From Haemophilus sp. C1 (lineage in GTDB: Bacteria > Pseudomonadota > Gammaproteobacteria > Enterobacterales > Pasteurellaceae), in NCBI RefSeq assembly GCF_001276515.1, contig NZ_LDVZ01000003.1, positions 62,001-126,000 on the forward strand: a stretch of 64,000 nucleotides of DNA. The letters are read 5' to 3'. Position 1 is the first letter of the stretch, and the number at the start of each line of letters is the position of its first letter. The notes below the pieces were generated by a model that ran no database searches, was not told where the DNA came from, and worked only from the letters and a program-made list of their open reading frames with translations. Below are positions 1,332 to 64,000 of this stretch, piece after piece. The translations under genes were made by a program, and so were the position numbers.

Positions 1332-1361
1332 ACTGCAACGAAAATTTACCGCACTTTATAG

Positions 1362-2647: not shown

Positions 2648-2668
2648 TAATTTAGCTATCACATTGTC

Positions 2669-2693: not shown

Positions 2694-2743
2694 TCTTCTT
2701 TTATAATGAGCTAATGTTCGCTTCAAATAACATATTGACCATA

Positions 2744-4234
2744 ATGAAAAAAACATTCCTATTTCTCACCGTTCTTTTTCCCATTTTTGCCTCGGCAGAA
2801 ATCTTAGTGCAAGATGTTCGTCAAATCCCAGTAAATACTGACTTTGATAATAAAATTAATATTGCGAAACCTGAAAAACGAGAACCAAATTTACCGCACT
2901 TAGGTACAGAACAAGCCGAACAAATTCAAATTACCCTTGAGCAACTTAAACAAAACCCAGTTTTAACCCACGAATTATTAACTCGTGCCATTTATGCCCG
3001 CAATCCAGAAATGATTAAAAAATTGCTGGAAATTTACCGCACTTTTCCAAATCGTGACCCGATTATGGAACGCTTTGCGGAAGGGAAATTGGCTGCGATA
3101 ACGGAAAACTATACTGTAGCCATTGATAAATATCGTGAAATTTTAGCCAAAAATCCAAATTTAAATCCTGTGCGAATTGAACTGGCTATCGCTTTATTCA
3201 ATCAAAAACAAGATGGTGCTGCCAAAGACCAATTTGAAAAAGCGCAAACTGCAGGGAATTTACCGCCTCAAGTTAAGCGTTTAATGGATGCTTATTTAGA
3301 GGCTTTAAAAGAACGTGATAGCTGGAATGTGGATTTTTCTTTTAACTATGTGCGAGATACCAATGTGAATAATGTCGGCAGTGGACGCCGTTTAGTTCTA
3401 CGTAATGGTGGGGTAATTACTCGCCCTGAATCAATGTTGCCTCAAACTGCACACGGATTGGCGTATTCACTGGATATTTCGAGAGATTTCAATTTATGGC
3501 GTTCTCATTACCTCACAGTGGGTAATGCGTTCGGGGGCAAGAGTTATTGGGATAATCATGAATTTGATGATATTTCCAACCGCACTTTTGTTGGCTATGC
3601 GCATAAAACCACGAAGCAAAATTTCCGTATTAAACCTTTTTATGAAAAACGTTGGTATGGTGGCGAAAGTTACCGTTGGTCTAACGGGGCAAGGGTAGAA
3701 TTTTCTCGTTGGTTAAGCCCGAATTGGCAGATTTCTACGGCGGGAGAATTTTCCAAACAACGTTATCTCGACAGTACATCACAAAACGGCAATAACAAAC
3801 TAATTTCAGCAACCTTACTTTGGGCAAGAACACCAAAACAGTTTTTCTATCTCGGTTCTGATTTTATGGCAGAAAGAACGAAGGTTCGTCAATATAGTTC
3901 AGACACTAAAAGTTTACGTTTAGGTTGGGGACAAGAGTGGGGATGGCTTGGTTTTTCTTCTCGTTTAAATTTATCTTTTACGCAAAGGCAATACAAAGAT
4001 GTATTAACTTTGGGTTCATACCAAACCCCGTTAGGCTTGCTTGATCTTTCCGTAGGTAAAAAACGAAAAGATAAAATTTACGGTGTGAATTTATCCCTAT
4101 GGAAACGTGACTGGCATATTTGGGGGATTACGCCAAAACTCCAATTAAGCTGGCGTAAACAAGATAGTAATATTCCAGAAATGTATTCTTACACTCAGAA
4201 GAATGTGAATGTGTTATTTGAGAAAACCTTTTAA
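2744..4234 (+). CDS. Slam-type surface lipoprotein assembly modulator (TPR plus DUF560 barrel)
   Basis: An outer-membrane protein that moves a partner lipoprotein or secreted barrel protein across the outer membrane. I start it at the ATG at 2744 (about 496 residues) because a clean signal peptide begins there (MKKTFLFLTVLFPIFASA, cleavage before EI). An in-frame ATG at 2714 would bury the signal. Residues ~35-190 are helical with TPR-like repeats. After SWNVDFSFNYVRDTNVNN, a signature of Slam barrels, the remaining ~300 residues alternate aromatic and polar residues as beta strands and end in a terminal Phe. The adjacent lipoprotein is the expected client. Two uptake sequences lie inside the gene. 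No strong ribosome-binding site is seen. Confidence 0.85.
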   Translation: MKKTFLFLTVLFPIFASAEILVQDVRQIPVNTDFDNKINIAKPEKREPNLPHLGTEQAEQIQITLEQLKQNPVLTHELLTRAIYARNPEMIKKLLEIYRTFPNRDPIMERFAEGKLAAITENYTVAIDKYREILAKNPNLNPVRIELAIALFNQKQDGAAKDQFEKAQTAGNLPPQVKRLMDAYLEALKERDSWNVDFSFNYVRDTNVNNVGSGRRLVLRNGGVITRPESMLPQTAHGLAYSLDISRDFNLWRSHYLTVGNAFGGKSYWDNHEFDDISNRTFVGYAHKTTKQNFRIKPFYEKRWYGGESYRWSNGARVEFSRWLSPNWQISTAGEFSKQRYLDSTSQNGNNKLISATLLWARTPKQFFYLGSDFMAERTKVRQYSSDTKSLRLGWGQEWGWLGFSSRLNLSFTQRQYKDVLTLGSYQTPLGLLDLSVGKKRKDKIYGVNLSLWKRDWHIWGITPKLQLSWRKQDSNIPEMYSYTQKNVNVLFEKTF

Positions 4235-47105: not shown

Positions 47106-49154
47106 TTATTTTACTTGCATGCCCGCAGTGACACCGCTATCAGCGGATAACAAGAATAAATCACTACCACCTGTTCCTGCAGATAGAATCATTCCCTCAG
47201 ATACACCGAATTTCATTTTACGTGGTGCAAGGTTTGCCACTATAATCACAAAACGACCTTCTAATTCTTCAGGCTTATTGTAAGCTGCTTTAATGCCAGA
47301 GAAAACTTGACGAGTATGATCGCCAAGATCTAATTCAAAACGTAAAAGTTTATTGGATTCTGGCACTGCTTCGCATTTCAATACTTTTGCTACACGCATA
47401 TCAAGTTTAGCGAAATCATCAATGGTGATGGTTTCAGCAATAGGTTCAACGGCAGAAAGTGCGGTTGATTTTGCTTCTGTTTTTTCTGCTGCTTTATTGG
47501 CTGCTGCAAATAAGGCTTTGGTTTCTTCTACAACGGCATCAATTTGTTTTTTCTCTAAACGAGAGAACAGGGCTTTAAACGGCGCAAGAGTATGGCCAAG
47601 CAATGGTTGATGAATATTATCCCAACGTAATTCAGCTTGTAAGAAGGCTTCTGCACGTTCAGCCAGTTTTGGAAGAACAGGTTTTAAGTAAGACATCAAC
47701 ACGCGGAAAAGCTCAATTCCCATTGAACATACGGCTTGTAATTCTGCCTCTTTGCCTTCTTCTTTTGCAATCACCCAAGGGGCTTTTTCATCAATGTATT
47801 TATTGGCTTTATCCGTTAATGCCATAATTTCACGAATGGCTTTATTGTATTCACGGCTTTCGTAATAAGCAGCGATTTGCTCGGCTTGGGCAGTAAATTC
47901 TGCAAATAATGTTTCATCTTCCAGTTTATTTGCAAGTTTGCCTTCAAAGCGTTTCGCAATAAAGCCTGCATTGCGTGAAGCTAAATTCACTAATTTGTTT
48001 ACAATATCCGTATTGACACGTTGTACGAAATCCTCAAGATTAAAGTCTAAATCTTCAATGCGATCATTTAATTTTGCCGCATAGTAATAACGCAAACATT
48101 CAGGATCGATATGATTCAAATAAGTGCTGGCTTGAATGAAAGTCCCACGAGATTTTGACATCTTCGCCCCATCCACTGTGACATAGCCATGAGTGAATAC
48201 ATTAGTCGGTTTACGATAGCCACTGCCTTCAAGCATTGCTGGCCAGAATAGACTGTGGAAATAAACGATGTCTTTACCGATGAAATGATAAAGTTCTGCA
48301 TCGCTGCCTTCCGCCCAAAATTCATTGAAATCAATGCCTTCACGATTGCATAGATTTTTGAATGACGCCATATAGCCGATTGGTGCATCTAACCAAACAT
48401 AGAAGAATTTATCTTTTGCGCCCGGAATTTCAAAACCAAAATAAGGCGCATCGCGTGAAATATCCCATTGTTGTAAACCACTCTCAAACCATTCTTGCAT
48501 TTTGTTCGCAATTTCAGATTGAAGTGAGCCAGAACGAGTCCATTCTTTTAACATCCCTTCAAATGCAGGTAAGTCAAAGAAAAAGTGTTCAGATTCTTTT
48601 ACCACAGGTGTTGCACCAGAAACCGCTGAACGAGGATTAATTAAATCCATTGGGCTATAAGTAGAAGCACACACTTCGCAGTTATCGCCATATTGATCTT
48701 CTGCTTTACATTTCGGGCAAGTGCCTTTCACAAAACGATCAGGCAAGAACATATTTTTTTCAGGGTCGAATAACTGAGAAATAACTTTACTCTTAATAAA
48801 ACCATTGGCTTTGAGTTTATTGTAAATTTCTGCGGTGAGCTGTTTGTTTTCTTCGCTGTGAGTGGAATGGTAGTTATCAAAGCTAATATTGAAACCTGCA
48901 AAATCACGCACGTGATCGGCTTTTGCTTTAGCAATTAATTCTTCAGGTGTAATGCCAAGTTTATCAGCATTCAACATAATCGGCGTACCGTGCGCATCGT
49001 CCGCACAAACAAAATGGATTTTATTGCCACGCATACGTTGAAAACGCACCCAAATATCCGCTTGGATATGTTCTAACATATGACCTAAATGAATTGCCCC
49101 ATTGGCATAAGGCAAGGCGCAAGTGACTAAAATTTTACGGGGTTGAGTTGTCAT
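47106..49154 (-). CDS. metG: Methionyl-tRNA synthetase
   Basis: Charges tRNA-Met with methionine. A 682-residue class I synthetase of the long, dimeric type. It has the HIGH-like HLGH at 22-25, a zinc knuckle with CPKC and CEVC (about 146-161), KMSKS in [11 protein letters not shown] near 335, an anticodon-binding helical domain, and a C-terminal tRNA-binding OB fold ([20 protein letters not shown] to the end). The start overlaps no other gene. The ribosome-binding site is weak (AGAGAATAATAA). Divergent from mrp. tmcA in this window acetylates the elongator tRNA-Met that MetG charges. Confidence 0.98.
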
Positions 49155-49303
49155 TTATTATTCTCTTTTTAGCATACAAAAATTGTGCTTATCTTACTTT
49201 AAATAGGGGATTTTTTCTAGTTTGAAAAACTTTAACTTAACATACCGCACTTTCCGTGATTAAATATGCCCGACAAATTTACTCTACTAAACAGGAAGTT
49301 ATT

Positions 49304-50416
49304 ATGGCAACCTACTTTTCTGATAATTTGACTGCCGAGCAACAACATCAAGTTCAGCAGATTATCCAACAATTTCAGCATCCAACCCTGCAAAAGGATC
49401 TGATTGCGCTTAATACTTTGAAAAAAGTGGAAAAGGGCGGTGATACTTTACGCATTGAATTGAAATTACCTTTTGCATGGAATTCTGGTGCAGAACAGTT
49501 AAAACAAGCGGTTTCAGATGCGTTGTTGAAAGCAACAGATTGTAAATCAATTAAATGGGCGGTGACTTATCAAATCGCCACACTTAAACGTGCAAATAAT
49601 CAACCTGCTGTAAAAGGTGTGAAAAATATTATTGCGGTGAGTTCTGGTAAAGGCGGTGTAGGGAAATCATCAGTTTCCGTTAATCTCGCTTTAGCATTAC
49701 AAGCACAAGGCGCACGTGTTGGAATTTTAGATGCGGATATTTATGGCCCTTCTATTCCACATATGTTAGGCGCAGCGAATCAACGACCAACTTCGCCAGA
49801 TAATCAACACATCACCCCAATTAAAGCACATGGTTTATCTGCAAATTCCATTGGCTTTTTAATGAATGAAGACAGCGCAACAATTTGGCGCGGTCCGATG
49901 GCGAGTAGCGCATTAAGCCAATTATTAAATGAAACCCTATGGGATAGTTTAGATTATCTTGTTATCGATATGCCTCCGGGCACTGGCGATATTCAACTTA
50001 CCTTATCACAACAAATTCCCGTGACTGGTGCCGTGGTAGTGACAACTCCGCAAGATATTGCTTTGCTTGATGCGGTGAAAGGTATTTCGATGTTTGAGCG
50101 AGTATCCGTACCAGTGTTAGGCATTGTGGAAAATATGTCGATGCATATTTGTAGCGAGTGCGGTCACCACGAAGCGATTTTTGGCACAGGCGGTGCAGAG
50201 AAAATGGCGGAAAAATACAATGTAAAAGTATTAGCTCAACTTCCTCTGCATATTCGTATCCGTGAAGATTTAGATGCAGGCAACCCAACTGTTGTGCGAG
50301 TGCCTGAAAATGAAATTTCACAAGCGTTCTTACAACTTGCAGAAAAAGTCTCTACAGAACTTTACTGGCAAGGTTCCGTAATCCCAAGTGAGATTTTATT
50401 TAAAGAAGTGAAATAA
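49304..50416 (+). CDS. mrp: Mrp/ApbC iron-sulfur carrier ATPase
   Basis: A P-loop scaffold/carrier for Fe-S clusters in the cytoplasm, 370 residues. The N-terminal ~95 residues are the MIP18-like DUF59 domain. The deviant Walker A SSGKGGVGKSS is at 113-123, followed by DADIYGPSIPHMLG and DYLVIDMPPGTGD. The cluster-binding CxxC is CSECGHHEAIFG near 287. I choose the ATG at 49304 (MATYFSDNLTAEQQ) with AGGAAGTTATT before it. The frame extends to 49256 without a ribosome-binding site. Confidence 0.95.
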   Translation: MATYFSDNLTAEQQHQVQQIIQQFQHPTLQKDLIALNTLKKVEKGGDTLRIELKLPFAWNSGAEQLKQAVSDALLKATDCKSIKWAVTYQIATLKRANNQPAVKGVKNIIAVSSGKGGVGKSSVSVNLALALQAQGARVGILDADIYGPSIPHMLGAANQRPTSPDNQHITPIKAHGLSANSIGFLMNEDSATIWRGPMASSALSQLLNETLWDSLDYLVIDMPPGTGDIQLTLSQQIPVTGAVVVTTPQDIALLDAVKGISMFERVSVPVLGIVENMSMHICSECGHHEAIFGTGGAEKMAEKYNVKVLAQLPLHIRIREDLDAGNPTVVRVPENEISQAFLQLAEKVSTELYWQGSVIPSEILFKEVK

Positions 50417-50640: not shown

Positions 50641-50910
50641 ATGAATATGAGATTACAAGTAAAACAGTGGGGAAATAGTAAAGCAATCCGTTTACCTAAG
50701 GACTTTACGGATTCTATGAATTTAGATATGGGAGACTTTTTGGAACTAGAAAAAATTAGCGATAATACAATTAAAGTGATTGTTGTGCCTAATAATCCGA
50801 AAAAAAGGAAAAGATTAACCTTAGATGAACGCCTTGCAATGACCTCATCAAAACAATTACCCGTCATTCAAGAATGGGATTCACTTGAGCCAACAGGACA
50901 GGAAATTTGA
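50641..50910 (+). CDS. MazE/AbrB-type antitoxin
   Basis: An 89-residue protein with an N-terminal swapped-hairpin DNA-binding domain of the MazE/SpoVT-AbrB type: MRLQVKQWGNSKAIRLPKDF, then NLDMGDFLELEKI. The acidic C-terminal tail (residues ~60-89) would wrap the toxin. The ATG at 50647 (MRLQ) is an alternative start. Its stop overlaps the toxin start (TGATG). No strong ribosome-binding site is seen close to either ATG. Confidence 0.88.
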   Translation: MNMRLQVKQWGNSKAIRLPKDFTDSMNLDMGDFLELEKISDNTIKVIVVPNNPKKRKRLTLDERLAMTSSKQLPVIQEWDSLEPTGQEI

Positions 50911-51260
50911 TGGCTAAACAACAATTTAAAAGAGGTGATATTATCACGGTGTGCTTAAATCCCGTTGTAGGAAATGAATTACAGGGTGAGAAACGTCCTG
51001 CATTAGTATTAAGCGATAATAAATTTCATAATTTGGGATTTATGATGATAGCACCGATTACACAAGGAAATGCGGCGCTTGCCAGAGAAAATGGTTTTGC
51101 GGTAACGTTAAGTGGAACAGGTTGTAAGACACAAGGTGTTGTTGCATATCAAGCCAGAATAATTGATTTTCGAGGTAGAGATGCGAAAAAAGTTGAATCT
51201 GTACCAGATTATGTTTTATTTGAAGTTCAAGACATTGTTGAAGCGATTTTAAGAGATTAG
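50910..51260 (+). CDS. MazF/PemK-type endoribonuclease toxin
   Basis: A 116-residue PemK/ChpB-like mRNA interferase that would arrest growth when the antitoxin decays. The RGDIITVCLNPVVGNELQGEKRPALVLS opening contains the conserved RGDI and RPALVLS elements, with the catalytic Arg in the loop. MMIAPITQG and GVVAYQARIIDFRGRDAKKVE follow. The ATG at 50910 overlaps the antitoxin stop. A strong terminator ends the pair. Confidence 0.9.
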   Translation: MAKQQFKRGDIITVCLNPVVGNELQGEKRPALVLSDNKFHNLGFMMIAPITQGNAALARENGFAVTLSGTGCKTQGVVAYQARIIDFRGRDAKKVESVPDYVLFEVQDIVEAILRD

Positions 51261-52304: not shown

Positions 52305-53009
<705 letters not shown>

Positions 53010-53016
53010 AAAAATT

Positions 53017-53045
53017 GGCCGCACTTTGCGGCCTTTGTTTTTTGA
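53017..53045 (+). terminator. Terminator after siaB
   Basis: GGCCGCA-ctt-TGCGGCC (53017-53033) followed by TTTGTTTTTTG. Its loop region contains an incomplete uptake sequence (CCGCACTTT). Confidence 0.88.
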
Positions 53046-53116
53046 TACGCATATTTGCTTTTTTCCAATAAAAACTCACCTAAAAATCACCGCTCTTTTG
53101 ATTACTTCTTGCGCAA

Positions 53117-53138
53117 AAAAAGCAAACGTTTGCTTTTT
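53117..53138. promoter_or_regulatory. PurR/LacI-family operator upstream of the autotransporter gene
   Basis: A perfect 22-base palindrome centred on AGCAAAC-GTTTGCT, 163 bases before the start codon. It fits every fixed position of the E. coli PurR consensus ANGCAANCGNTTNCNT. Nearer the gene are a hairpin AACCTCT/AGAGGTT (about 53236-53265) and AT-rich DNA. No homopolymeric tract like those reported for some phase-variable adhesins is present. Confidence 0.6.
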
Positions 53139-53300
53139 ATTTTTATGATATTTTAAATGTAAATTATTGTAAATACTGCTTCTGAAAATTGAATTTTATA
53201 ACTAAATCTATATAATTTTATCATTTTGTATACTTCAACCTCTTTTACAAATTGAATAGAGGTTGAGAATCATTTTTTGACATAGTTATAGAGATATTTT

Positions 53301-56300
53301 ATGAACAAAATTTTCCGTGTTGTATGGAGTCAAGCGACTCAATCTTGGGTGGTCGTTTCAGAATTAACCAAAGCACATAAAAAACAAAGTTCATCCAATG
53401 CACAAAAAAGTGCGGTTAATTTTTCAGGCAATTTTATTAAATCTTCAGCCATCGCATTGGCATTATTAAGTGGCCATTCGGCTTATGCAGCTGAGGCTGC
53501 AAGTGGGTTGATTCAGATTAATTCAACAAAAGGGATAGCTACTGCAACAGGTAGCGACTCTATTGCTATTGGTAACGATTCTAAGGCAATTGGAAATAAT
53601 AATTCACTTGCTATTGGTCATAGTGCACAAGCAACAGGAAACGATGGAGCATTAGCAATAGGTAGAAACTCAAAAGCCGGTGGAAATAACGGTATAGCCT
53701 TAGGTAGAGAAGCTGAAACGACTGAAAATGATTCTATAGCCTTAGGTTATAAAGCGAAAGCAATAGGAAAGGATGGAGCATTAGCAATAGGTAGAAACTC
53801 AACAGCCGATGGAAAGAACAGTAGTATAGCCTTAGGTAGCGACTCAAAAGCCAGTGGAGAAAGCAATATAGCCTTAGGTTATCTAGCGAAAGCAGATAAA
53901 AATTTTGCTATAGCTATCGGTAAGGGTGCTAGTGCTCAAAAATTTAATAATGCTGTAGCTATTGGTGCAAACGCACAAGCAAATGGTGCTACATCGTTGG
54001 CATTGGGAATGGAATCGAAAACTACAGGTCACGATAGTTATGCCATAGGCTACAGAAGTGAGACCATTGGAGACACGTCAATAGCGTTTGGTCGACAAAG
54101 TACAGCAAGAGGAAAGTATGATATTGTTATGGGTGCAGAAGCTGAAACTCGAGATCAAGATGACCGTAAAGGTTATAGTATTGCCATTGGTGCTGGTGCT
54201 ATGTCGGGAACTAACAAACCTGGGAAAAATCTTAATGGTGGAGATGCTGGCGGTGTAGCTATTGGTACTGGTGCTTATACTGGGGTAAATAGAAATAATA
54301 TTTCTTTAAACTCTGCTGTTGCAGTAGGGGCCGGTGCCGGTGCTGGATTTAGAAAGTTAGATAATAATGGTATGCCTGCGCAGAATGCTACAGATGTTGA
54401 TAATAATGATGAAGTGCTGAAAAAAGCGTTTGGTGTTAAAAATGTTGCAGATTATCAAAAAATAGCAGGTGGTACTAACGGATACACAAATGTAGATATT
54501 AATGAAGCCACAGCGTTAGGTCGTAATGCACGTGCTATAGGAGACCAATCTGTGGCAATAGGGGCTCAAACTATTGCTGGTATGGGTGCTATTGCATTAG
54601 GTGGAAATGATATTACTCAATTTGCAAATAAAAAATATTACAAATCAACCAAAGAAAATTTTGCTGTTACAGAAACAATAGACCATAATCAAGATGCAAA
54701 AATATCAGATGACACGATTAGTGGTGCATATAATAGACTTGTTGGTACTGCGTTAGATACACAATATAAAGCGACTTATGCACAAGATGGTTCAGTAGTA
54801 TTAGGAGCACAAGCTCATTCAGGAACACCATTGGGAACGGCACTTGGTACGAATGCTTTAATACGTAAAGGTGCATTTGGTGCAACAGCCATTGGTGCAG
54901 GTTCACAAGTTCAAGCTAATGCAGAAGCAGCGGTAGCAATTGGTATGGGATCTTTTGCCAATGGTAAGTATGCCGTAGCAGCAGGTACTGGGTCCCGGGC
55001 AGAATTAGGCGATATAGCTATGGGTTATAAAGCACAAGCCAGTGGTAAACAAGGTGCTATTGCTATTGGTCAATCTACGAATGCTCAAGGTGACTCATCT
55101 ATTATGATTGGCGGTGCTAACATTTCTAATGCTGCGGCTCAAATTACTAGTTATAAAGCAGAACGAAAAAATCCCGATGGCTCTCATATGACCTATACAA
55201 AAGAGGTGACAGAACGTATTAATGGACAAGATGTAAAACGTACATATACGTTCGTATCTACAGAGAATAAGACGGGTAAAGTGGAAGATGCCTATGCTGA
55301 ATTAACAGGCAAACCAATGAATGTAAAATCGTTAGATTATAATGACTCGAAGAATAGCAATGGACATGCCTCTACCTCTATAGGTGTACATTCCTTAGCA
55401 CAAGGTAATCTGGCTTCTGCTTACGGTGCTAGCTCTCGTGCAATAGCGATTGGCTCCTTAGCGTTGGGTACAGGTGCGATTGCAGATAGACAAAATGCAG
55501 TGGCTATTGGTACAGGATCTACAACGGACTTAGTAGGTACTCGTCAATTAGATGCGAGCTACGATAAATATGGTAACTGGGTAGCTAGTGATTCTCCTGA
55601 TGCGGTATATAAATTTAGATGGGCCGGCGGTATAAATACATCTGAAGGTGACGTAGTATCCTTTGGTAGCTCCGGCGCAGAACGTCAATTGAAAAATGTG
55701 GCGGCGGGTCGCGTGGCAGAAGATTCGACAGATGCCATCAACGGCTCACAGTTAAACTCCGTGGCGCGCAAAGTGGCATCCGGCTGGCAGATCGCCGGCA
55801 ATGAAAAAACCAAAGTCGCCGGTATAGGCTCGGACGATCAGGTTAACTTCACCGACGGCAAGGGCACGACGGTAACTGTAATGGCGCAGGACGCGGTAAA
55901 AGAAACCGTGACCGAAAACGGCAAACAGGTTGAAAAAATCAAAACCCCGAAAGGCGCGAACGTCAAATTTGATATCAAAAATGCCGACGATTCTTTGGAA
56001 GTCGGCACAAACGGCGTGAAGGTCAAGACTTCAGATGGCATCGAGACCACGACAAACGGCATTAAGGTCAATACCGGCAAAGGCCTCAAAATTGATGCGG
56101 CTGATGGCAACAAAGTTGCGGTTAATACTGATGATAAAACAATCACTGTCAGCGATGATGGCACAGTGAAGGCTGTTGCAGGAACGATAGAAACGGTTAC
56201 AGCTAAGAATAAAGTCACTGGTGAAAAAGTTGGTCAAGTACGTCCTGCTAAAGATGATAAAGGCAAACTGGCTACAGTCGATGCGGTGGCAAATGCCGTC

Positions 56301-59300
56301 AACAATGCCGCGTGGAGCATTACGTCCGATACCGACGGCGGCAGCTTCGCAACGTCCGGTCATACCAAAACCACCGAAAAAATCAGCGCGGGCGGCAGCG
56401 TAACCTTTAAAGCAGGCAACAACCTGATAATCAAACAGGCAGGTACGGACTTTACCTACTCGCTCAATCCGATTTTGAACGGGCTGACATCGGCAGAGTT
56501 TAAAGGCACAGGTGAAAATGCGCCGATTACCAAACTGACCAATGCAGGCATTACGGTAACAACACCGGCAGATGCGGTTGCAAATACGCCGGAGAAAACG
56601 GTAACGCTGAATCAAGACGGCTTGAACAACGGTGGCAATGCGATTTCTAATGTGAAATCTAATCTTCCTGCTACTAAAAATAGCGACACTGCAAATACAG
56701 CAGCTGCGCCAAGTAATGCCACGAAAACTCAAGCAGTGCCAAATACAACGAATATGAAAGGCACAGATTATGTCAATCCAAACAATGCCGCTACCGTGGG
56801 TGACGTATTAAATGCAGGTTGGAACTTGAAAGGCAAGGGCACAGCGGTTGACTTTGTAAAAGCCTACGATACTGTGGATTTTGTGGACGGTGATGGTACA
56901 ACTGCGTCTGTTGAAAGCAAGGATGGTCAAACCTCGACCGTGAAATACAGTGTAAACACCACGACAATCAAGCCCGATACAGCTAATGCAGGTAAGGTTA
57001 AAGCAGAAGGAACAGGCAATACATTTGCAACAGCAGAAACTGTAGCAAGTGCGATTAATGATGCCTATTGGAAAGCAGCGGCTTCAGGTAATGGTGCAAC
57101 AACGGATGTAGCAGACAATGTGAAAGCTGGTGATACGGTGACCTTTAAAGCAGGCAAAAACTTAACGGTTACACACAACAATACGAATAAATCGTTTGAG
57201 TTTGCAACCACTGATACACCGGAGTTTAGCTCTGTTCAATTTGGGAATAATGGTCCGAAAATCACCCACGATGGTGATAACTTAAAAGTCACTAAAGCGG
57301 ATGGCAAAAGCCCGACCAAAATCACCAACGTAGCTAACGGTAGCGATGGCAACGATGCTGTAAACGTAAGCCAATTAAAAGCAAGCGGTTGGAAAGTTGC
57401 AGGAAATAGCAAAACTGAAGTTGACACCATCAATCCAAGCGAGCAAGTGAATTTCTTGAATGGTAGTGGCACAACCGTAACTGTTGAAAAAGATAAAGGT
57501 GCAGACGGCAAAGAAAACGGCAACGTCAACGTGAAATACGATGTGAACGTTGGCAATGGTTTACAGAAAGATACGGCAAGCAATACTATTTCTGTAAAAC
57601 CAGCGGATAGCACAATTACCGTTGGTACAGATGGCGTGAAAGTAAATACGGGCGATATTGCAACGGAATCAACGGGTAAGGCAACAACTGCATTAGATAA
57701 AGCGATTGCAGAAGCGACCAAGGAATTGGCTGAAGCGACCGAGGCTGGGGATGCTACTGCACAGCAAGCGGCACAAGCGAAACTTGATGCTGCAAATCAA
57801 GCAAAAACTGATGCGGGCAAACAGATTGCGACGGTAGAAAATGTCACTGAAGCCATCAACAAGGCGGGTTGGAATGCCATTGCTGCTAAAACTGAAAATG
57901 GAGAGGTGTCAGGCGAAGCAGCGCAACTTGTGAAACCGGGCCAAACCGTTACATTTGAAGCAGATAAAAATGTCAAGATTGCTCAAAATGGAAGTAAATT
58001 CACATTCTCGACAAAAGATAATGTTGAATTTAAATCTGTCAAAGTCGGCGAAGAAAAAGACGGCAAAAAACCGGTCAGCCTGACAACCAGTGTGGCAACA
58101 CCTGCCGATAATAATCAGACAGGAAAAGCCCCGACGACTGCGTTGAATATCAGCAGCGGCGAGGGTAAGGATGCGAAACCGACGCAAATTACAGGCGTAG
58201 GTTCGGTGTTGAATGCAACAACGGTTACAAGCGCGCCGGACGGCACCACGCCGACAACCCAACCGAAATTGGTTAACCTCGGTACGGCACATAATCAGAC
58301 GGCATTGGCAGACAATGTTTTAAACTCTGCCGCCACTGTACGCGATTTGGCAAATATGGGCTGGAAAGTTTCGGCAGATAAAGTAACCGGCGCAGACGAT
58401 AAGTCATACAGTGATGTGGTGAGAAATGCGGACGAAGTGAAATTCGTCGGCAAAAACGCCGCCAAAGTATCGGGTAAAACCGAGAACGGCGTGCGCACTA
58501 TTACCGTTGATGTGGAAGTGCCTGATGTTAAAACTGCCAAGCTGGTTTCCAGCACCGACGGTTCTGTGATTGCGCCGTCAACTGATCCCGCGCTCCAAAA
58601 AGCATTAAAAGATGCGAAAGACGAGTTGGCCAGATTGCCTGACACTGCAACTAAAGCGGAAAAAGAAGCGGCTGAGAATAAAGTCAAAGATGCCGAAACG
58701 GCATTAAATAATGCTTTGGATGATACAGGCGTTGCTACGGCTAAAAATGTTGCGGATATGATCAACAATTCCGGCTTTACGCTGAAAACTTCCGCTGACG
58801 AGGGCAAGAAAGATGCCGCATCGGCAGGCAGTGAAGTCATCAAACCGGGCAAAACCGTTGAAATGGTCGCGGGTAAAAACTTAACCGTGAAACAAGGAAC
58901 TAACGGTAAAGTAACTTACAGCCTGAATCCGGAATTAATTAACCTGACCTCCGCCGAGTTCAAAGCCGACGGCAAACCGACGGTGAAAATCAGTTCAGAC
59001 GGCATTACCATTACGCCCGCTGCGCCGACGACCGGCGGTGAGCAAAAACCGAATGTTAGTCTGACCGAAAACGGCTTAAACAACGGCGGCAATGCGATTT
59101 CTAATGTAGCCGGCAACCTTGACGGCGCGAAAACCGGTACGACCGCGCCGACAACTTCAGCAATAAAACCGACCGCACTTACCGAAACCAATGCGGCAAC
59201 CGTGGGCGATGTATTGAATGCAGGCTGGAACTTGCAAGAAAAAGGCGAGGCAAAAGACTTTGTCAAAGCCTACGACACCGTAAACTTCGTACAAGGCGAC

Positions 59301-62300
59301 GGCACGGACGTGTCTGTCAGCGTGTCTGCCGACAAGCAGACCTCGACCGTGAAATACAGCGTCAAAGCCGACGGCAACTCTTTGGAAGTCGGCGCAAACG
59401 GCGTGAAGGTCAAGGTTTCAGACGGCATCAAGACCACGGCGAACGGCATTGCCGTGAAAGCCGCCGATAAAACGCTTACGGTCGGCACAGACGGCGTAAA
59501 AGTCAATACAGGCGCGATTGCCGCAGCAAATGGCGGCGAAGACCAAACCGCCGATCGCGGCAAGGTAACCGTTACCCCCAAAACCAAGGAAGACGGCAAA
59601 CTGGAAACACAGGCGGAGGCAGAAACCCGCGCGGCTTCCGAGATTGCCACAGTGAAAAACGTTGCGGATGCAATCAACAGCGCGGCGTGGATTGCCAAAG
59701 TGGAAAACACGGACGACAGCGTGGATACGCCGACCGAAAACGATAAAGGCACGGCGGTCAAGGCGGGCGACACGTTGAACCTGAAAGCGGGCAAAAACCT
59801 GCGTGTCAACCACACCGGCGGCAACATTACCTTTGCCTTGGCGAAGGACATTACAGTTGAAACCGCCAATGTGGAAAACACGCTGACCATTGGCAAAGAT
59901 AGGGCGAAAGTCAATATTGCAAGCAGTGCAAACGGTTTGACCCTCTCCGGCACGGAAACCGCCGCCGACGGCTCGACAAACAACAACGCCCCAGTCTATC
60001 TGAACGGTATCAAGCCGACCCTGACCGACACCTTGGCGGGCAGCCCGACCACGAACATTACCGCCAACATTAATGCCACCGCCTATCACCGCGCCGCCAG
60101 CGTTCAAGATGTGTTAAATGCCGGTTGGAACATCCGGGGCGCGAAAAAGGCGGGCGGCGAGGTCGAAAACGTCGATTTCGTCCGCACTTACGATACCGTG
60201 GACTTTGTCAGCGGCAATAAGGCGACGACGGATGTTACTGTTGCCGCAGAAGACGGCGGCAAACGCGCAGTCGTTACCATTACCGCCAAAAACGACGCCG
60301 GCAGCATCACGACGGCGGGCGGCAAGGTTGTCGTCGGCACAAACGGGAAGGCAGACACCGACCCTAAAGCAGGGAACAAAGTGGCAAAAACCGGCGATGT
60401 GGCAAACGCCATCAATCAGTCGGGATGGAAAACCAATGCGACCAAAATCAACGGTGCAGCGGCAACCAAGGCGGACAAAACCCAATTAATCAACCCGGGC
60501 GATGCCGTCAATTACGAAAACGGCAACGGCACGGTTGCCAATGTGGAAGTTACGCAAGGTAAGGACGGCAATCCCGATACCGTCAGCGTGAAATACGATG
60601 TCAAAGCCGACGGTACGACCATTAAAGTGGGCGACGACGGCAAAGTTACAGCCGTAACGGGCACGATAGAAACGGTTACAGATAAGAATAAAATCGCTGG
60701 TGAAAAAGTTGGTCAAGTACGTCCTGTTGATGCTGATAAAGGCAAACTGGCGACAGTTGATGCGGTGGCAAATGCCGTCAACAGCGCGAAATGGTATGCG
60801 AAGGCAACCAACACAGATGAAGAGATTAAAGATAAGGATAAAACCAATGACACAACAGGCGAAGGCATTGCCGCAGGCGATGAAGTAACCTTCACGGCAG
60901 GCAAAAACCTGCGTGTCAAACATACCGGCAAAAACTTTACCTTTGCCACTGTGGAAACGCCCGAGTTTGAAGGCTTGAAACTGGTTCAAGGCGGCAACAC
61001 CGTCAATATCGCGCCGACTGCAAATGGTTTGAGCTTCAGCCGTCCTGCCGCAACGGCGGGCGGGAAGGGACAGCCAGTCACCCTTGGCGGCATAAGCAGC
61101 GGTTTGGAGAAATTCGACGCTGCCGATCCGAAAACCGAGGGGCTCTTGAACCTCAATAAAACCGAAGCTGGCAAGACCGAACCGACAGTAGGCGACAATA
61201 CCGCCGCCACCGTGGGCGACTTGCGCGGTATGGGCTGGGTGCTTTCTGCCGATAAGGAAACAGACAATCCCGACAAGACTTACAACGCGCAGGTAAAAAA
61301 TGCCGAAGAAGTGAAATTTGTCGGCAAAAACGCCGCCAAAGTATCGGGTAAAACCGAGAACGGCGTACGCACCATTACGGTAGACGTGGATCACCAGCTT
61401 GCGACGAATAATTCGGTCAAACCGGTGGAATATACCAAGAAAGACGGAACAAAAGTCTATCCGAAAACCGTGACCAAAGATGACGGCACGACGGAAACCA
61501 AGTTTTATCCGAATGCCGACGGTACGGGAGACGAAGTGCCAGCAGACGATGTAATCGTTTCGGTCAACGGCGCGAACGGCACGAAATCTCCGACCACCTT
61601 GTCGAATGTTAAATCAAACCTTCCCGAAACCCGCAATACGGCGGATGCCGGCAAACCGGCAAGCAAATCGCAATCCGCCCCGACAATCGGCACGGCGGAC
61701 GGCAATGTGAATGCGAACAACGCCGCTACCGTGGGCGACGTGTTAAACAGCGGCTGGAACTTGAAGGGCAACGGAAGTGCGGTTGATTTTGTCAGGGCGT
61801 ATGACAGCGTGAACTTTGTAAACGGCAAGGGAACGACGGTCAGCATCGAAACCGACGGCAAGGAAAGCCGGGTGAAGGTGGATGTGGATACGGGTGTAAT
61901 CACTGCGGAAACCAAAGACGGTAAAGCTACGGGTAAAGTTGCAGGTCCGGTTGCTAATGCTGCGGATTTATCGAAAGCAATCAAAGATGCTCAAGATGAA
62001 TTGGCGAAAGCAGTAGATGAACAGGCTAAGAAAGCGGCTCAAACTAAACTTGATACGGCAAATAAAGCGGCAGATGAGGCAGGTTTGAACAAAGTTGCAA
62101 CCGCTCAAAATGTTGCGGATATGATTAACAACTCCGGCTTTACGCTGAAGACTTCCGCCACTGCTGCCGCCGACAATCTGACTGCCGACAATACCCTGAA
62201 GAACGACGGGGAAGTCATCAACCCGGGTAAAACCGTTGAAATGGTTGCGGGTAAAAATCTAACCGTGAAACAGGATGCGGGCGGCAAAGTCACTTATGCG

Positions 62301-64000
62301 ACCAAAGACGACGTTGAGTTTGCAACTGTGAAAATCGGTAAAGATGAAGACGGCAAAAAACCGGTCAGCCTGACGACGGAAGCAGCTAAAGAAGCATCCA
62401 ATAACGATGCGGCAAACAAACCGGCAACGGCACTGAAAATCTCTTCAGACGGCAAACCGGCCCAACTTGTCGGCGTGGCATCGGTGTTGAATACAAGCAA
62501 AGTCATCACCAAACCGAACGGCGATAAAAAGGCGGACGGTAAGCCGGCAGAGTCGAAAACGGAAAAACTGATCGACTTGGCAGGTACAAAAGCAGCACCG
62601 GTGAACAAGAACGCCGCCGCAACCGTAGGCGACCTGCAAAATATGGGCTGGGTGGTATCGACCAAAGACGGCAACGGCTACACCGATGTCGTGAAGAACG
62701 CCAACCAAGTGGACTTCAAAGGCGGTACCGGCATTTCCATTACAGGTAAAACCCTTGAAGATGGCACCCGCCAATTGACTGTAGGCATTAAAGAGGGAGA
62801 AGTTACAGATAAAGTAACTATTACTCATAAAGATGGAACTAGAACAGAAGCTGTTAAGATCGGAGATAATTATTACAAGCTCGATAAAGATGGAAAACCA
62901 GAAGGCTTCCAAACAGATGTGAATGGTAAACCTGCAGGTACCCCATTAAATATCGATAAAGATAATGATGTGATAACTAACAGCGGTTCAGGCTTTGTTA
63001 CTGGTAATACTGTGGCAACAGCAATCCAAGAGTCTGGTTGGAATGTTGGTTTGGCTGACGCATCCAAAGCTAATGCAGCATTTAGTGATAAAGATAAAGC
63101 GTTATCAGCAGATAAACTTGAGAAAGTCAATCCAAATGACAATGTTCGTTTTGCTGATGGTAAAGGCACAAAAGCAGCAGTCGCAACCGTTGAGCGTGTT
63201 GATGAGTTCGGCAAGAAAGTGACTGATACTTATGTGAAGTTTGATGTGGATGAGGGTAAAATTACTGCGGACACAACCAAACCTGGTGCGGTAAAAGGCC
63301 CTGTTACTGCAGATGAAGCGAAGAAACTTGCTGATGATTTAGCAAATGCGCAAAACGCAGTAAACAATTTGGCACCAGATGCAGATGAAGCAACGAAAAA
63401 AGCTGCTCAAGATGTACTTAAAGCAGCCCAAGATGCGGCAGCACCGTTGAACAAAGTAGCGACTGCCCAAAACGTTGCGGATATGATTAACAACTCTGGC
63501 TTTACGTTGAAGACTTCTGCAACTGCCGATGGTAAGAAAGAATCTGGTGACGATGAAGTTATCAACCCAGGCAAAGCGGTTGAAATGATTGCAGGTAAAA
63601 ACTTAACCGTGAAACAAGAAGCTGATGGTAAAGTTACTTACGCAACTAAAGACGATGTTCAATTCAATAGCGTACAGTTTGGCGGTGATAAAGGACCTAA
63701 GATTTCATCTACTGCAGAGGGTAACATCAATGTAAGTGGTGCGGATGGTAAGGCACCTGCTAAGATTACTGGGGTTGCTGCAGGTGATATTTCACCAAAC
63801 AGCACAGATGCAGTAAATGGGGCACAGCTTTATGCATTAGCGGGCGATCAGAAAAATGTAAATCCTACAAATAATAAGTACGATACGATTGAGTATGATA
63901 GCCAAAATAATCCTAAGTATGTGACTAAAGACGCGCCTACAGGTAAAACAGTTGTAACTGAAAAAATTGATGGGCATGATGTCGCAGTGTTAAGAACTTA
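53301..64000 (+). CDS. Giant trimeric autotransporter adhesin (Hia/Hsf type), 3' end outside the window
   Basis: An open frame of at least 3,566 codons from the ATG at 53301 to the window edge. I read its start, several internal repeats and its end in the same frame and saw no stop. It begins with an extended signal peptide (MNKIFRVVWSQATQSWVVVS, cleavage after AYA near residue 62). The head (to about residue 780) has many YadA-like repeats (SIAIG, ALAIG, SIALG). A neck-like sequence, ERQLKNVAAGRVAEDSTDAIN, precedes the stalk. The stalk repeats blocks such as ADMINNSGFTLKTSA (three copies), GEKVGQVRP with ATVDAVANAVN (two) and GKNAAKVSGKTENGVRTITV (two), and NxAATVGD neck motifs. The C-terminal membrane anchor lies beyond the window. 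Base composition alternates between AT-rich Haemophilus style and GC-rich neisserial style along the gene. Confidence 0.93.
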   Translation, partial: MNKIFRVVWSQATQSWVVVSELTKAHKKQSSSNAQKSAVNFSGNFIKSSAIALALLSGHSAYAAEAASGLIQINSTKGIATATGSDSIAIGNDSKAIGNNNSLAIGHSAQATGNDGALAIGRNSKAGGNNGIALGREAETTENDSIALGYKAKAIGKDGALAIGRNSTADGKNSSIALGSDSKASGESNIALGYLAKADKNFAIAIGKGASAQKFNNAVAIGANAQANGATSLALGMESKTTGHDSYAIGYRSETIGDTSIAFGRQSTARGKYDIVMGAEAETRDQDDRKGYSIAIGAGAMSGTNKPGKNLNGGDAGGVAIGTGAYTGVNRNNISLNSAVAVGAGAGAGFRKLDNNGMPAQNATDVDNNDEVLKKAFGVKNVADYQKIAGGTNGYTNVDINEATALGRNARAIGDQSVAIGAQTIAGMGAIALGGNDITQFANKKYYKSTKENFAVTETIDHNQDAKISDDTISGAYNRLVGTALDTQYKATYAQDGSVVLGAQAHSGTPLGTALGTNALIRKGAFGATAIGAGSQVQANAEAAVAIGMGSFANGKYAVAAGTGSRAELGDIAMGYKAQASGKQGAIAIGQSTNAQGDSSIMIGGANISNAAAQITSYKAERKNPDGSHMTYTKEVTERINGQDVKRTYTFVSTENKTGKVEDAYAELTGKPMNVKSLDYNDSKNSNGHASTSIGVHSLAQGNLASAYGASSRAIAIGSLALGTGAIADRQNAVAIGTGSTTDLVGTRQLDASYDKYGNWVASDSPDAVYKFRWAGGINTSEGDVVSFGSSGAERQLKNVAAGRVAEDSTDAINGSQLNSVARKVASGWQIAGNEKTKVAGIGSDDQVNFTDGKGTTVTVMAQDAVKETVTENGKQVEKIKTPKGANVKFDIKNADDSLEVGTNGVKVKTSDGIETTTNGIKVNTGKGLKIDAADGNKVAVNTDDKTITVSDDGTVKAVAGTIETVTAKNKVTGEKVGQVRPAKDDKGKLATVDAVANAVNNAAWSITSDTDGGSFATSGHTKTTEKISAGGSVTFKAGNNLIIKQAGTDFTYSLNPILNGLTSAEFKGTGENAPITKLTNAGITVTTPADAVANTPEKTVTLNQDGLNNGGNAISNVKSNLPATKNSDTANTAAAPSNATKTQAVPNTTNMKGTDYVNPNNAATVGDVLNAGWNLKGKGTAVDFVKAYDTVDFVDGDGTTASVESKDGQTSTVKYSVNTTTIKPDTANAGKVKAEGTGNTFATAETVASAINDAYWKAAASGNGATTDVADNVKAGDTVTFKAGKNLTVTHNNTNKSFEFATTDTPEFSSVQFGNNGPKITHDGDNLKVTKADGKSPTKITNVANGSDGNDAVNVSQLKASGWKVAGNSKTEVDTINPSEQVNFLNGSGTTVTVEKDKGADGKENGNVNVKYDVNVGNGLQKDTASNTISVKPADSTITVGTDGVKVNTGDIATESTGKATTALDKAIAEATKELAEATEAGDATAQQAAQAKLDAANQAKTDAGKQIATVENVTEAINKAGWNAIAAKTENGEVSGEAAQLVKPGQTVTFEADKNVKIAQNGSKFTFSTKDNVEFKSVKVGEEKDGKKPVSLTTSVATPADNNQTGKAPTTALNISSGEGKDAKPTQITGVGSVLNATTVTSAPDGTTPTTQPKLVNLGTAHNQTALADNVLNSAATVRDLANMGWKVSADKVTGADDKSYSDVVRNADEVKFVGKNAAKVSGKTENGVRTITVDVEVPDVKTAKLVSSTDGSVIAPSTDPALQKALKDAKDELARLPDTATKAEKEAAENKVKDAETALNNALDDTGVATAKNVADMINNSGFTLKTSADEGKKDAASAGSEVIKPGKTVEMVAGKNLTVKQGTNGKVTYSLNPELINLTSAEFKADGKPTVKISSDGITITPAAPTTGGEQKPNVSLTENGLNNGGNAISNVAGNLDGAKTGTTAPTTSAIKPTALTETNAATVGDVLNAGWNLQEKGEAKDFVKAYDTVNFVQGDGTDVSVSVSADKQTSTVKYSVKADGNSLEVGANGVKVKVSDGIKTTANGIAVKAADKTLTVGTDGVKVNTGAIAAANGGEDQTADRGKVTVTPKTKEDGKLETQAEAETRAASEIATVKNVADAINSAAWIAKVENTDDSVDTPTENDKGTAVKAGDTLNLKAGKNLRVNHTGGNITFALAKDITVETANVENTLTIGKDRAKVNIASSANGLTLSGTETAADGSTNNNAPVYLNGIKPTLTDTLAGSPTTNITANINATAYHRAASVQDVLNAGWNIRGAKKAGGEVENVDFVRTYDTVDFVSGNKATTDVTVAAEDGGKRAVVTITAKNDAGSITTAGGKVVVGTNGKADTDPKAGNKVAKTGDVANAINQSGWKTNATKINGAAATKADKTQLINPGDAVNYENGNGTVANVEVTQGKDGNPDTVSVKYDVKADGTTIKVGDDGKVTAVTGTIETVTDKNKIAGEKVGQVRPVDADKGKLATVDAVANAVNSAKWYAKATNTDEEIKDKDKTNDTTGEGIAAGDEVTFTAGKNLRVKHTGKNFTFATVETPEFEGLKLVQGGNTVNIAPTANGLSFSRPAATAGGKGQPVTLGGISSGLEKFDAADPKTEGLLNLNKTEAGKTEPTVGDNTAATVGDLRGMGWVLSADKETDNPDKTYNAQVKNAEEVKFVGKNAAKVSGKTENGVRTITVDVDHQLATNNSVKPVEYTKKDGTKVYPKTVTKDDGTTETKFYPNADGTGDEVPADDVIVSVNGANGTKSPTTLSNVKSNLPETRNTADAGKPASKSQSAPTIGTADGNVNANNAATVGDVLNSGWNLKGNGSAVDFVRAYDSVNFVNGKGTTVSIETDGKESRVKVDVDTGVITAETKDGKATGKVAGPVANAADLSKAIKDAQDELAKAVDEQAKKAAQTKLDTANKAADEAGLNKVATAQNVADMINNSGFTLKTSATAAADNLTADNTLKNDGEVINPGKTVEMVAGKNLTVKQDAGGKVTYATKDDVEFATVKIGKDEDGKKPVSLTTEAAKEASNNDAANKPATALKISSDGKPAQLVGVASVLNTSKVITKPNGDKKADGKPAESKTEKLIDLAGTKAAPVNKNAAATVGDLQNMGWVVSTKDGNGYTDVVKNANQVDFKGGTGISITGKTLEDGTRQLTVGIKEGEVTDKVTITHKDGTRTEAVKIGDNYYKLDKDGKPEGFQTDVNGKPAGTPLNIDKDNDVITNSGSGFVTGNTVATAIQESGWNVGLADASKANAAFSDKDKALSADKLEKVNPNDNVRFADGKGTKAAVATVERVDEFGKKVTDTYVKFDVDEGKITADTTKPGAVKGPVTADEAKKLADDLANAQNAVNNLAPDADEATKKAAQDVLKAAQDAAAPLNKVATAQNVADMINNSGFTLKTSATADGKKESGDDEVINPGKAVEMIAGKNLTVKQEADGKVTYATKDDVQFNSVQFGGDKGPKISSTAEGNINVSGADGKAPAKITGVAAGDISPNSTDAVNGAQLYALAGDQKNVNPTNNKYDTIEYDSQNNPKYVTKDAPTGKTVVTEKIDGHDVAVLRT
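53643..53801 (+). repeat. Exact 30-base direct repeat in the adhesin head
   Basis: The sequence at 53643-53672 recurs unchanged at 53772-53801, 129 bases (43 codons) apart, both encoding DGALAIGRNS. Identical DNA between otherwise diverged head repeats points to a recent in-frame duplication or exchange that could lengthen or shorten the head. Confidence 0.8.
58994..59005 (-). other. Perfect 12-base neisserial DNA uptake sequence, copy 1
   Basis: TTCAGACGGCAT, the complement of the Neisseria uptake sequence ATGCCGTCTGAA, lies in frame inside the adhesin gene and encodes part of SSDGI. Confidence 0.85.
59417..59428 (-). other. Perfect 12-base neisserial DNA uptake sequence, copy 2
   Basis: A second TTCAGACGGCAT, 423 bases after the first and again in frame (VSDGI). 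A 10-base core copy occurs at 62444-62453 and a one-mismatch 12-base copy at 56030-56041. Haemophilus uptake sequences lie in the same gene at 59172-59180 and 61775-61783. Confidence 0.85.

What the first reader, a model, noticed from the sequence alone, without database searches (positions are those of the whole stretch)
53301..64000. Chimeric adhesin with neisserial uptake sequences in a Haemophilus gene
The gene alternates between AT-rich DNA (head to ~55640, ~56630-57930, ~61900-62110, from ~62780) and GC-rich DNA with neisserial codon choice (~55640-56620, ~57930-61900, ~62110-62780). Two perfect 12-base neisserial uptake sequences (58994, 59417) lie in the GC-rich part. One exact 12-mer would be expected roughly 0.001 times in this length under random uniform sequence. 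Two perfect Haemophilus uptake sequences lie in the same part (59172, 61775). A gene readable by the uptake machinery of both genera suggests repeated transfer between co-resident respiratory bacteria and a shared adhesin pool.
Basis: partly seen in the sequence, partly recalled or inferred. Interest (0 to 1): 0.75.

Follow-up and report, generated by a model that had tools for sequence, protein, structure and literature searches.

The report
Haemophilus adhesin with a Neisseria stalk
A giant surface adhesin gene in a Haemophilus chromosome has a long middle section of near-identical Neisseria DNA, complete with Neisseria uptake signals, showing that these throat bacteria swap pieces of an adhesin across genus lines.

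Summary
The gene (53301 to beyond 64000; complete protein 3899 aa, P0001) encodes a trimeric autotransporter adhesin at a Haemophilus locus. Its stalk, 57301-62700, is nearest to Neisseria: 50 of 54 100-bp bins are >=90% identical to a Neisseria locus, 8 of 54 to a Pasteurellaceae locus; 52 are nearer Neisseria, none nearer Pasteurellaceae. A 305-bp run just upstream (56634) is exact to N. bergeri. Housekeeping DNA beside the gene is only 63-71% identical to three Neisseria genomes in matches longer than 60 bp. Of the 120 best stalk relatives, 114 have anchors nearest the neisserial references, 4 (the window's included) the Haemophilus ones. Beyond about 62735 most bins are Haemophilus again. 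Three neisserial uptake words exceed codon-preserving shuffles and recur in matching Neisseria alleles. The three Neisseria genes carry heads with Haemophilus codon usage, that of N. bergeri up to 99% identical per bin. Correction: AT-richer inner segments are shared with Neisseria too. Exchange is shown; uptake through these words and direction are inferred. Haemophilus-Neisseria mosaics with both uptake words are published (modA), so this is a large new member of a known kind.

The parts
53301..64000 (+). Giant trimeric autotransporter adhesin gene, open at the window end; complete protein 3899 aa (P0001)
   Evidence: P0001 begins with the window's 3566 residues
53301..53414 (+). Extended signal peptide region (ESPR), residues 1-38
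   Evidence: Pfam PF13018, E 2.9e-15
53301..55600 (+). Head with Haemophilus codon usage; 13 of 23 bins >=90% to Pasteurellaceae loci, 8 of 23 to Neisseria loci; 17 nearer Pasteurellaceae, 3 nearer Neisseria
   Evidence: YadA_head PF05658
55601..57300 (+). Junction zone where H. haemolyticus M19187/M19501 and Neisseria tracts are both near-identical (11 of 17 bins >=90% on either side); contains a 305-bp exact match to N. bergeri (from 56634) and a 341-bp exact match to M19187 (from 56556)
57301..62735 (+). Stalk of neisserial type: of the 54 bins to 62700, 50 are >=90% to Neisseria loci and 8 to Pasteurellaceae loci; 52 nearer Neisseria, 0 nearer Pasteurellaceae
62736..63998 (+). Distal stalk, mostly Haemophilus type (8 of 12 bins from 62701 >=90% to Pasteurellaceae loci) with a short patch at about 63400-63700 up to 91% identical to the Neisseria genome G053; Haemophilus codon usage
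58994..59005 (-). Perfect 12-mer neisserial DUS; identical at the aligned site in N. bergeri and H. haemolyticus M19187
59417..59428 (-). Perfect 12-mer neisserial DUS; identical at the aligned site in N. viridiae and H. haemolyticus M19501
62444..62453 (-). Perfect 10-mer neisserial DUS; identical in N. bergeri, N. polysaccharea and G053
53408..53416 (+). hUSS core followed by an AT tract, in the head; conserved in G001, G003, M19187 and M19501, degenerate in the three Neisseria genes
59172..59180 (-). hUSS core inside the neisserial stalk; identical in N. polysaccharea, N. viridiae and M19501; 245 bp from the DUS at 59417
61775..61783 (+). hUSS core followed by TGATTTT inside the neisserial stalk; N. 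viridiae and N. polysaccharea differ from the core by one base, N. bergeri by two
61230..61391 (+). Best Trp-ring domain (residues 2644-2697) of the repeated stalk modules; nearest solved structure Hia
   Evidence: Pfam PF18669; 1s7m, E 5.3e-21
52326..53009 (+). Cytidylyltransferase (CTP_transf_3) gene just upstream; with the nitroreductase and mrp-like genes it marks a conserved Haemophilus locus
   Evidence: the name mrp is recalled

Best explanation
The gene encodes a type Vc trimeric autotransporter adhesin: ESPR signal, YadA-type head, a long stalk of repeated Trp-ring and neck modules, and a C-terminal trimeric anchor. It sits at a Haemophilus locus with a Haemophilus-type head, mostly Haemophilus distal stalk and Haemophilus anchor. 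About 5.4 kb of its stalk was exchanged with AT-DUS commensal Neisseria (N. polysaccharea/bergeri/viridiae/lactamica group). The likely route is natural transformation followed by homologous recombination between the repeated, conserved stalk and head modules, which would also explain the many short tracts. Exchange probably went both ways: neisserial stalk into several Haemophilus genes, and Haemophilus-type heads into Neisseria genes. Stalk DNA carrying DUS can be taken up by Neisseria, and stalk DNA carrying hUSS by Haemophilus. Shown: the shared near-identical DNA, breakpoints, discordant trees, codon signature and conserved uptake words. Inferred: uptake through those words, direction of each tract, and adhesion to the shared mucosa.
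For: Identity: 90-93% to Neisseria over 0.6-3.2 kb stretches (and 86% over 2.5 kb), with 305 bp exact, against 63-71% for neighbouring housekeeping DNA in the 14 of 16 matches longer than 60 bp; the other two are 60 bp at 78% and 44 bp at 84%. Stalk bins: 50 of 54 >=90% to 21 Neisseria loci, 8 of 54 to 47 Pasteurellaceae loci. Anchors of the 120 listed stalk relatives: 114 neisserial, 4 Haemophilus, 2 unmatched; 107 of the 114 are >=97% identical to a neisserial reference, 6 are 95-96%, one (P0015) matches weakly. Codon log-odds: Haemophilus reference -0.52 (sd 0.10), Neisseria +0.48 (sd 0.21); the window's 58851-62600 mostly +0.1 to +0.7, head and tail -0.40 to -0.86, first 1.2 kb of the three Neisseria genes mostly -0.37 to -0.77. 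DUS: 3 DUS10 against 0.026 in codon shuffles, the same sites in Neisseria. Ten Haemophilus genomes hold 23 DUS12, 0 for the reversed control; 2 of 3 in M19501 and 1 of 1 in M19187 lie in this gene family. AU tests: Haemophilus-anchored stalks as one clade p 0.037; neisserial-anchored heads as one clade p 0.011. Runs tests p 0.0002-0.0014 in 4 of 4 regions tested.
Against: Direction is not settled for most tracts, and the inner AT-richer tracts shared by both genera have intermediate codon usage. The tail is not purely Haemophilus: 2 of 12 bins are >=90% to the Neisseria genome G053 and 3 of 12 are nearer Neisseria. The hUSS core in two Neisseria genes may be chance. For P0016, P0060 and P0080 only protein was available, so a closer Haemophilus nucleotide relative may exist; in protein tiles the best of these three beats the best neisserial one in 1 of 37 stalk tiles and equals it in 9. 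AU tests were run on two of the five segments treed, with short alignments and hand-picked unnamed rows. At DNA level only one genome per species was searched, and only 2-3 candidates per genome were scored.
Confidence: 0.86

Rival explanations
1. Reverse origin: the stalk arose in Haemophilus or another Pasteurellaceae and Neisseria acquired it, later gaining DUS and neisserial codon usage by amelioration.
For: The Neisseria genes have Haemophilus-codon heads; a second Pasteurellaceae genus, G149, carries stalk tracts at 69-87% identity and two DUS10 in the same region.
Against: Stalk GC3 and codon log-odds are neisserial in both genera, including inside Haemophilus; anchors nearest Neisseria outnumber Haemophilus ones 114 to 4 in the 120 listed; 3 of 140 Pasteurellaceae genomes carry the stalk at E<=1e-40, though 4 of 83 Neisseriaceae genomes is not many more.
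Confidence: 0.07
2. Both genera drew the stalk independently from an unsampled third donor, such as another oral member of either family.
Against: AT-DUS words at the aligned sites and neisserial anchors point to AT-DUS Neisseria themselves; a 305-bp exact match to N. bergeri needs recent direct or near-direct exchange.
Confidence: 0.05
3. Assembly chimera or contamination.
For: The window's own assembly could not be inspected; all three Neisseria contigs end within about 80-290 bp upstream of the gene.
Against: The frame is intact across every junction and the complete protein is listed from a 150,975-base contig; P0016 and P0080, named H. haemolyticus and on other long contigs, and M19501/M19187 show differently arranged hybrids; the three Neisseria flanks are DUS-rich with no hUSS, the nine Haemophilus flanks counted are the reverse.
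Confidence: 0.01
4. No transfer: an ancient shared adhesin kept similar by purifying selection, with DUS appearing through SDG codon use.
For: Trimeric adhesins of both genera share the fold and Trp-ring modules.
Against: 90-100% nucleotide identity in surface-protein DNA against 63-71% in housekeeping DNA; codon shuffles reject the DUS by codon use; anchor and stalk groupings conflict.
Confidence: 0.01

Closest known systems
modA phasevarion methyltransferase DRD exchange between Neisseria and H. influenzae (Gawthorne et al. 2012, PMC3311624; abstract, section 9 and passages read)
   Same: Mosaic gene exchanged between the same two genera; neisserial and Haemophilus uptake words reported near the exchanged domain
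   Different: A DNA methyltransferase specificity domain of pathogenic species; here a roughly 5.4-kb surface adhesin stalk shared with commensal Neisseria
Kroll et al. [quoted passage not shown] not held; title seen in reference lists; content recalled)
   Same: Chromosomal gene transfer between the genera, linked to uptake words (recalled)
   Different: Recalled as Haemophilus-to-meningococcus transfer of whole genes such as sodC; here many internal tracts, with neisserial DNA in Haemophilus
Hia/Hsf of H. influenzae and NhhA/Msf of Neisseria (PMC3960869 passages; PDB 1s7m, 3emf, 5lnl)
   Same: Trimeric autotransporters homologous across the two genera; Hia and Hsf chains match stalk domains of this protein
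   Different: NhhA is given as 57 kDa and its likeness to Hsf as ~74% similarity at protein level, not near-identical mosaic DNA
TabA/TahA trimeric adhesins of H. influenzae biogroup aegyptius (PMC3309571 passages)
   Same: Large Haemophilus trimeric adhesin repertoire; TabA1 has a raised G+C of 47%
   Different: The passages shown mention no neisserial stalk, and the main text has no word beginning 'uptake'

Membership tests
Trimeric autotransporter adhesin (type Vc) | ESPR signal, YadA-type head, coiled stalk and Trp-ring domains | tested here: met
   PF13018, PF05658, PF05662, PF18669 above curated cut-offs; Hia_Tpr_ring_dom PF22414 below its cut-off
Trimeric autotransporter adhesin (type Vc) | C-terminal YadA anchor | tested here: met
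   Outside the window; PF03895 precomputed on the complete protein P0001. Identity to other anchors: P0060 99%, P0016 and P0080 90%, H. parainfluenzae 87%, G149 86%, G001 83%, M19187/M19501 48%, Neisseria G053 42%
Trimeric autotransporter adhesin (type Vc) | Trimerisation and adhesion | not testable with these tools
   Inference from the family only
Intergeneric (Neisseria-Haemophilus) mosaic gene | Tract identity to the other genus far above genome background | tested here: met
Intergeneric (Neisseria-Haemophilus) mosaic gene | Discordant relationships between segments of one gene | tested here: met
Intergeneric (Neisseria-Haemophilus) mosaic gene | Donor-type codon usage inside the tract | tested here: met
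   for 58851-62600; intermediate at 56451-57801
Intergeneric (Neisseria-Haemophilus) mosaic gene | Donor uptake words inside the tract | tested here: met
Intergeneric (Neisseria-Haemophilus) mosaic gene | Two-way transfer | tested here: inconclusive
   Neisseria heads have Haemophilus codon usage and mix with Haemophilus heads in the tree, but donor and direction per tract are not fixed
Intergeneric (Neisseria-Haemophilus) mosaic gene | Uptake words promote entry of this DNA in both genera | not testable with these tools
   Needs uptake assays
Hia/Hsf orthologue | Whole-length relationship to Hia/Hsf | tested here: inconclusive
   Only short domain stretches match Hia and Hsf chains, which are themselves fragments

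The most novel reading that the evidence does not exclude
The stalks of these giant adhesins form one recombining, cross-genus gene pool: AT-DUS Neisseria and H. haemolyticus-group Haemophilus keep swapping stalk modules, and the stalk DNA holds both genera's uptake words (hUSS and DUS 245 bp apart at 59172-59428, with the same spacing in N. viridiae) so that it stays readable to both. That would keep open a leak in the uptake-word barrier at a surface antigen.
Probability: 0.35. Interest if true: 0.78.

Novelty: new member of a known kind. Interest (0 to 1): 0.6.

Why it matters
Uptake words are thought to limit DNA uptake to close relatives with the same word. A gene in which kilobases of near-identical DNA cross between Neisseria and Haemophilus, with both sets of words inside, gives a natural case for measuring how strong that barrier is in the human throat. 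It also means that surface adhesins, which are considered as antigens and diagnostic markers, need not respect genus lines, and that commensals are a shared reservoir.

Tried and rejected
Codon use of the SDG motif as the source of the DUS: rejected by 2000 synonymous shuffles. Contamination or misassembly: judged very unlikely from flank uptake words, intact frame and several differently arranged hybrids. Base composition as a donor marker: rejected in part, because the AT-richer inner segments are also shared with Neisseria. hUSS in Neisseria genes as proof of reverse flow: dropped, since hUSS cores occur there at the level of the reversed control. A first version of the bin counts used 13 Pasteurellaceae loci of 9 genomes and 4 Neisseria loci; one search repeats it with all 47 Pasteurellaceae and 21 Neisseria loci listed there (many overlapping), which left the stalk counts of bins >=90% unchanged and raised the tail's Pasteurellaceae bins from 2 to 8 of 12. 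Phase-variable repeats: units of 1-6 bases in at least five copies and at least 9 bases long were not found in 53001-63998; tandem repeats found are three rows in the head and one in the stalk. No structure was predicted. Nine answered paper searches listed no report of this adhesin exchange by title or by the shown start of the abstract; the lists were capped (for example 15 of 539) and the library lacks most subscription papers.

Full report
What is there. A single open frame starts at 53301 and runs off the window (3566 aa, no stop). A protein search returned the complete product, P0001, 3899 aa, from a 150,975-base contig; a script confirmed that it begins with the window's residues. Pfam finds ESPR, YadA head repeats, YadA stalk and Trp-ring domains above cut-off, and P0001 carries the YadA anchor. 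The nearest solved structure is the Hia Trp ring (1s7m, E 5.3e-21). It is a trimeric autotransporter adhesin.

The locus is Haemophilus. The window holds 60 hUSS cores against 0.47 expected. Upstream DNA matches G001 and G007 of the same genus at 93.7-96.0%, with the adhesin in the same place. Window 47106-50416 (metG and an mrp-like gene, names recalled) is 95-97% identical in all 10 genus genomes. Of the three other Haemophilus-anchored proteins among the stalk relatives, P0016 and P0080 are named H. haemolyticus; P0080 is identical to the window in all 50-residue tiles from 251 to 1300. The strain is therefore probably H. haemolyticus or close; the species was not settled.

Observation. Composition and codon usage alternate as described. 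With 31 ORFs from the window and 49 neisserial ORFs as references, per-codon log-odds average -0.52 (sd 0.10) in Haemophilus and +0.48 (sd 0.21) in Neisseria. The head scores -0.50 to -0.86, windows starting at 58851-62451 score mostly +0.1 to +0.7 (lowest -0.03 and -0.19), and those from 62751 score -0.40 to -0.63. Windows starting at 56451-57801 are intermediate (-0.14 to -0.41) (all). The uptake words are as reported, plus a third DUS10 at 62444 and a third hUSS at 53408. Codon-preserving shuffles give 0.026 DUS10 and 0.015 DUS12 for the stalk; 3 and 2 are seen, and no shuffle of 2000 reached either.

Where the stalk comes from. A scan of one genome per species found ten loci encoding stalk relatives: N. 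polysaccharea, N. bergeri and N. viridiae first, then two H. haemolyticus and one H. parainfluenzae, then four weak ones. BLASTN gives, for example, 89.8% over 3188 bp (N. bergeri), 91.0% over 2905 bp and 91.8% over 1349 bp (N. viridiae), 85.7% over 2475 bp and 93.5% over 612 bp (N. polysaccharea). In 100-bp bins of 57301-62700, 50 of 54 are at least 90% identical to one of 21 Neisseria loci and 8 of 54 to one of 47 Pasteurellaceae loci; 52 are nearer Neisseria (46 by more than 3 points), 2 tie and 0 are nearer Pasteurellaceae. In the head 13 of 23 bins are at least 90% to Pasteurellaceae and 8 to Neisseria; in the junction zone 11 of 17 each; in the tail 8 of 12 to Pasteurellaceae and 2 of 12 to Neisseria, the latter from G053. 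So the tail is mostly but not purely Haemophilus; G053 also matches 71 bp at 63552-63622 at 98.6%. The longest exact runs are 305 bp to N. bergeri (from 56634) and 341 bp to H. haemolyticus M19187 (from 56556), overlapping in the junction zone. The control is the 13 kb of ordinary genes upstream: 14 of 16 matches to the three Neisseria genomes are 63-71% identical, the other two are 60 bp at 78% and 44 bp at 84%.

How widespread. At E<=1e-40 the stalk is found in 3 of 140 Pasteurellaceae genomes and 4 of 83 Neisseriaceae genomes, with only 2-3 candidates scored per genome. In the protein collection 2035 of 2343 scored candidates pass 1e-50 and the best 120 are listed. Of these, 114 have an anchor nearest the neisserial references, 4 the Haemophilus ones (P0001, P0016, P0060, P0080) and 2 (P0017, P0055) match neither. 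Of the 114, 107 are at least 97% identical to a neisserial reference, 6 are 95-96% and P0015 matches only weakly. All 37 tiles of 50 residues from 1301 to 3150 have a match of at least 0.90 in the 114; the best of P0016, P0060 and P0080 is lower in 27 tiles, equal in 9 and higher in 1. After 3150 the 114 reach at most 0.64, while P0060 is 0.96-1.00. Best of 114 against best of 3 is not a balanced comparison. In one search I had left P0015 out of this set and P0055 in; one search replaces those counts.

Two-way traffic. The three Neisseria genes begin with about 1.2 kb of Haemophilus-type codon usage (-0.37 to -0.77, with one N. viridiae window at -0.15). The N. bergeri head is 89-99% identical to the window in bins 54301-54700, 81% in the next and 91-92% at 54801-55000. 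Trees were built for five segments from 22 proteins, 7 of them hand-picked unnamed rows. In the head tree N. bergeri joins H. haemolyticus M19187 (SH-aLRT 96). Holding the four neisserial-anchored heads together is rejected (p-AU 0.011), as is holding the four Haemophilus-anchored stalks together in residues 2101-2420 (p-AU 0.037). The other three segments were not AU-tested. Runs tests on informative sites show blocks in 4 of 4 regions (p 0.0002-0.0014).

Uptake words. The DUS at 58994 is identical in N. bergeri and M19187, the one at 59417 in N. viridiae and M19501, and the one at 62444 in N. bergeri, N. polysaccharea and G053. Ten Haemophilus genomes hold 23 DUS12 in all and none of the reversed control; in M19501 2 of 3 and in M19187 1 of 1 lie in this adhesin (placed with the coordinates). 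The three Neisseria flanks hold 10-13 DUS10 and no hUSS; the nine Haemophilus loci counted hold 3-13 hUSS and no DUS10 in their flanks. The hUSS core at 59172 is also in N. polysaccharea, N. viridiae and M19501. At 61775 N. viridiae and N. polysaccharea differ by one base and N. bergeri by two. hUSS cores in the three Neisseria genomes number 17-20, like the reversed control (20-24), so the shared one at 59172 could be chance.

Different neighbourhoods. In N. polysaccharea and N. viridiae a DNA gyrase subunit A-type gene lies downstream of the adhesin (with an IS1595-type transposase between in N. viridiae). M19501's gene lies between a tetrahydrodipicolinate succinyltransferase gene and an adenylosuccinate synthetase gene, and the window's gene lies after a cytidylyltransferase gene. 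In one search the window's upstream 13 kb gave no match longer than 150 bp to the three Neisseria loci, so internal parts crossed between genera and these flanks did not.

Mechanism. The best account is transformation and homologous recombination at the repeated modules. In N. meningitidis, USS-bearing plasmid gave 2 colonies in all experiments, and the control without DUS did not transform (PMC3630211, passages). In H. influenzae the central GCGG is crucial for uptake, with the AT tracts contributing (PMC7811141, passages). So DUS in the Haemophilus copy would let Neisseria take it back, and hUSS in the stalk would help Haemophilus. This step is inferred.

Known relatives. Mosaic exchange with both uptake words is described for modA between the same genera (PMC3311624; abstract, section 9 and passages). 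Nine answered paper searches listed no report of this adhesin exchange by title or shown start of abstract. It is therefore a new, unusually large member of a known kind.

Noticed in passing
G005:C1:986062-986152 and G009:C1:1957125-1957215: Two Haemophilus genomes each hold a pair of 12-mer DUS on opposite strands 79 bases apart, an arrangement recalled from neisserial DUS terminators; perhaps another transferred piece.
   Followed up: no
G006:C1:1221852-1224250 and G004:C5:40506-42686: Further Haemophilus genomes hold two same-strand DUS12 about 2.2-2.4 kb apart.
   Followed up: no
L009, L010, L011 (5' ends): All three Neisseria contigs end within about 80-290 bases upstream of the adhesin start, as if a repeat lies there.
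   Followed up: no
L011:9613-10266: IS1595-type transposase gene between the adhesin and the gyrase A-type gene in N. viridiae.
   Followed up: partly
window 49154-49256: metG and the mrp-like gene (names recalled) are adjacent in the window and in 4 of 10 genus genomes; in the other 6 about 1.1-1.3 kb of extra DNA lies between them.
   Followed up: no
window 50907-51260: 117-aa ORF that looks like a MazF/PemK-type toxin by eye (recalled, not searched).
   Followed up: no
L065 (G149, another Pasteurellaceae genus): Carries stalk tracts 69-87% identical to the window and two DUS10, so a second Pasteurellaceae genus may take part in the exchange.
   Followed up: partly
G053:C1:1704000-1723900 (L062): A fourth Neisseria genome whose adhesin matches both the stalk and a patch of the otherwise Haemophilus-type tail.
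   Followed up: partly
L012 and L013 C-termini: The M19501 and M19187 hybrids end in a second Haemophilus anchor type, 48% identical to the window's, so neisserial stalk has entered at least two kinds of Haemophilus adhesin.
   Followed up: partly
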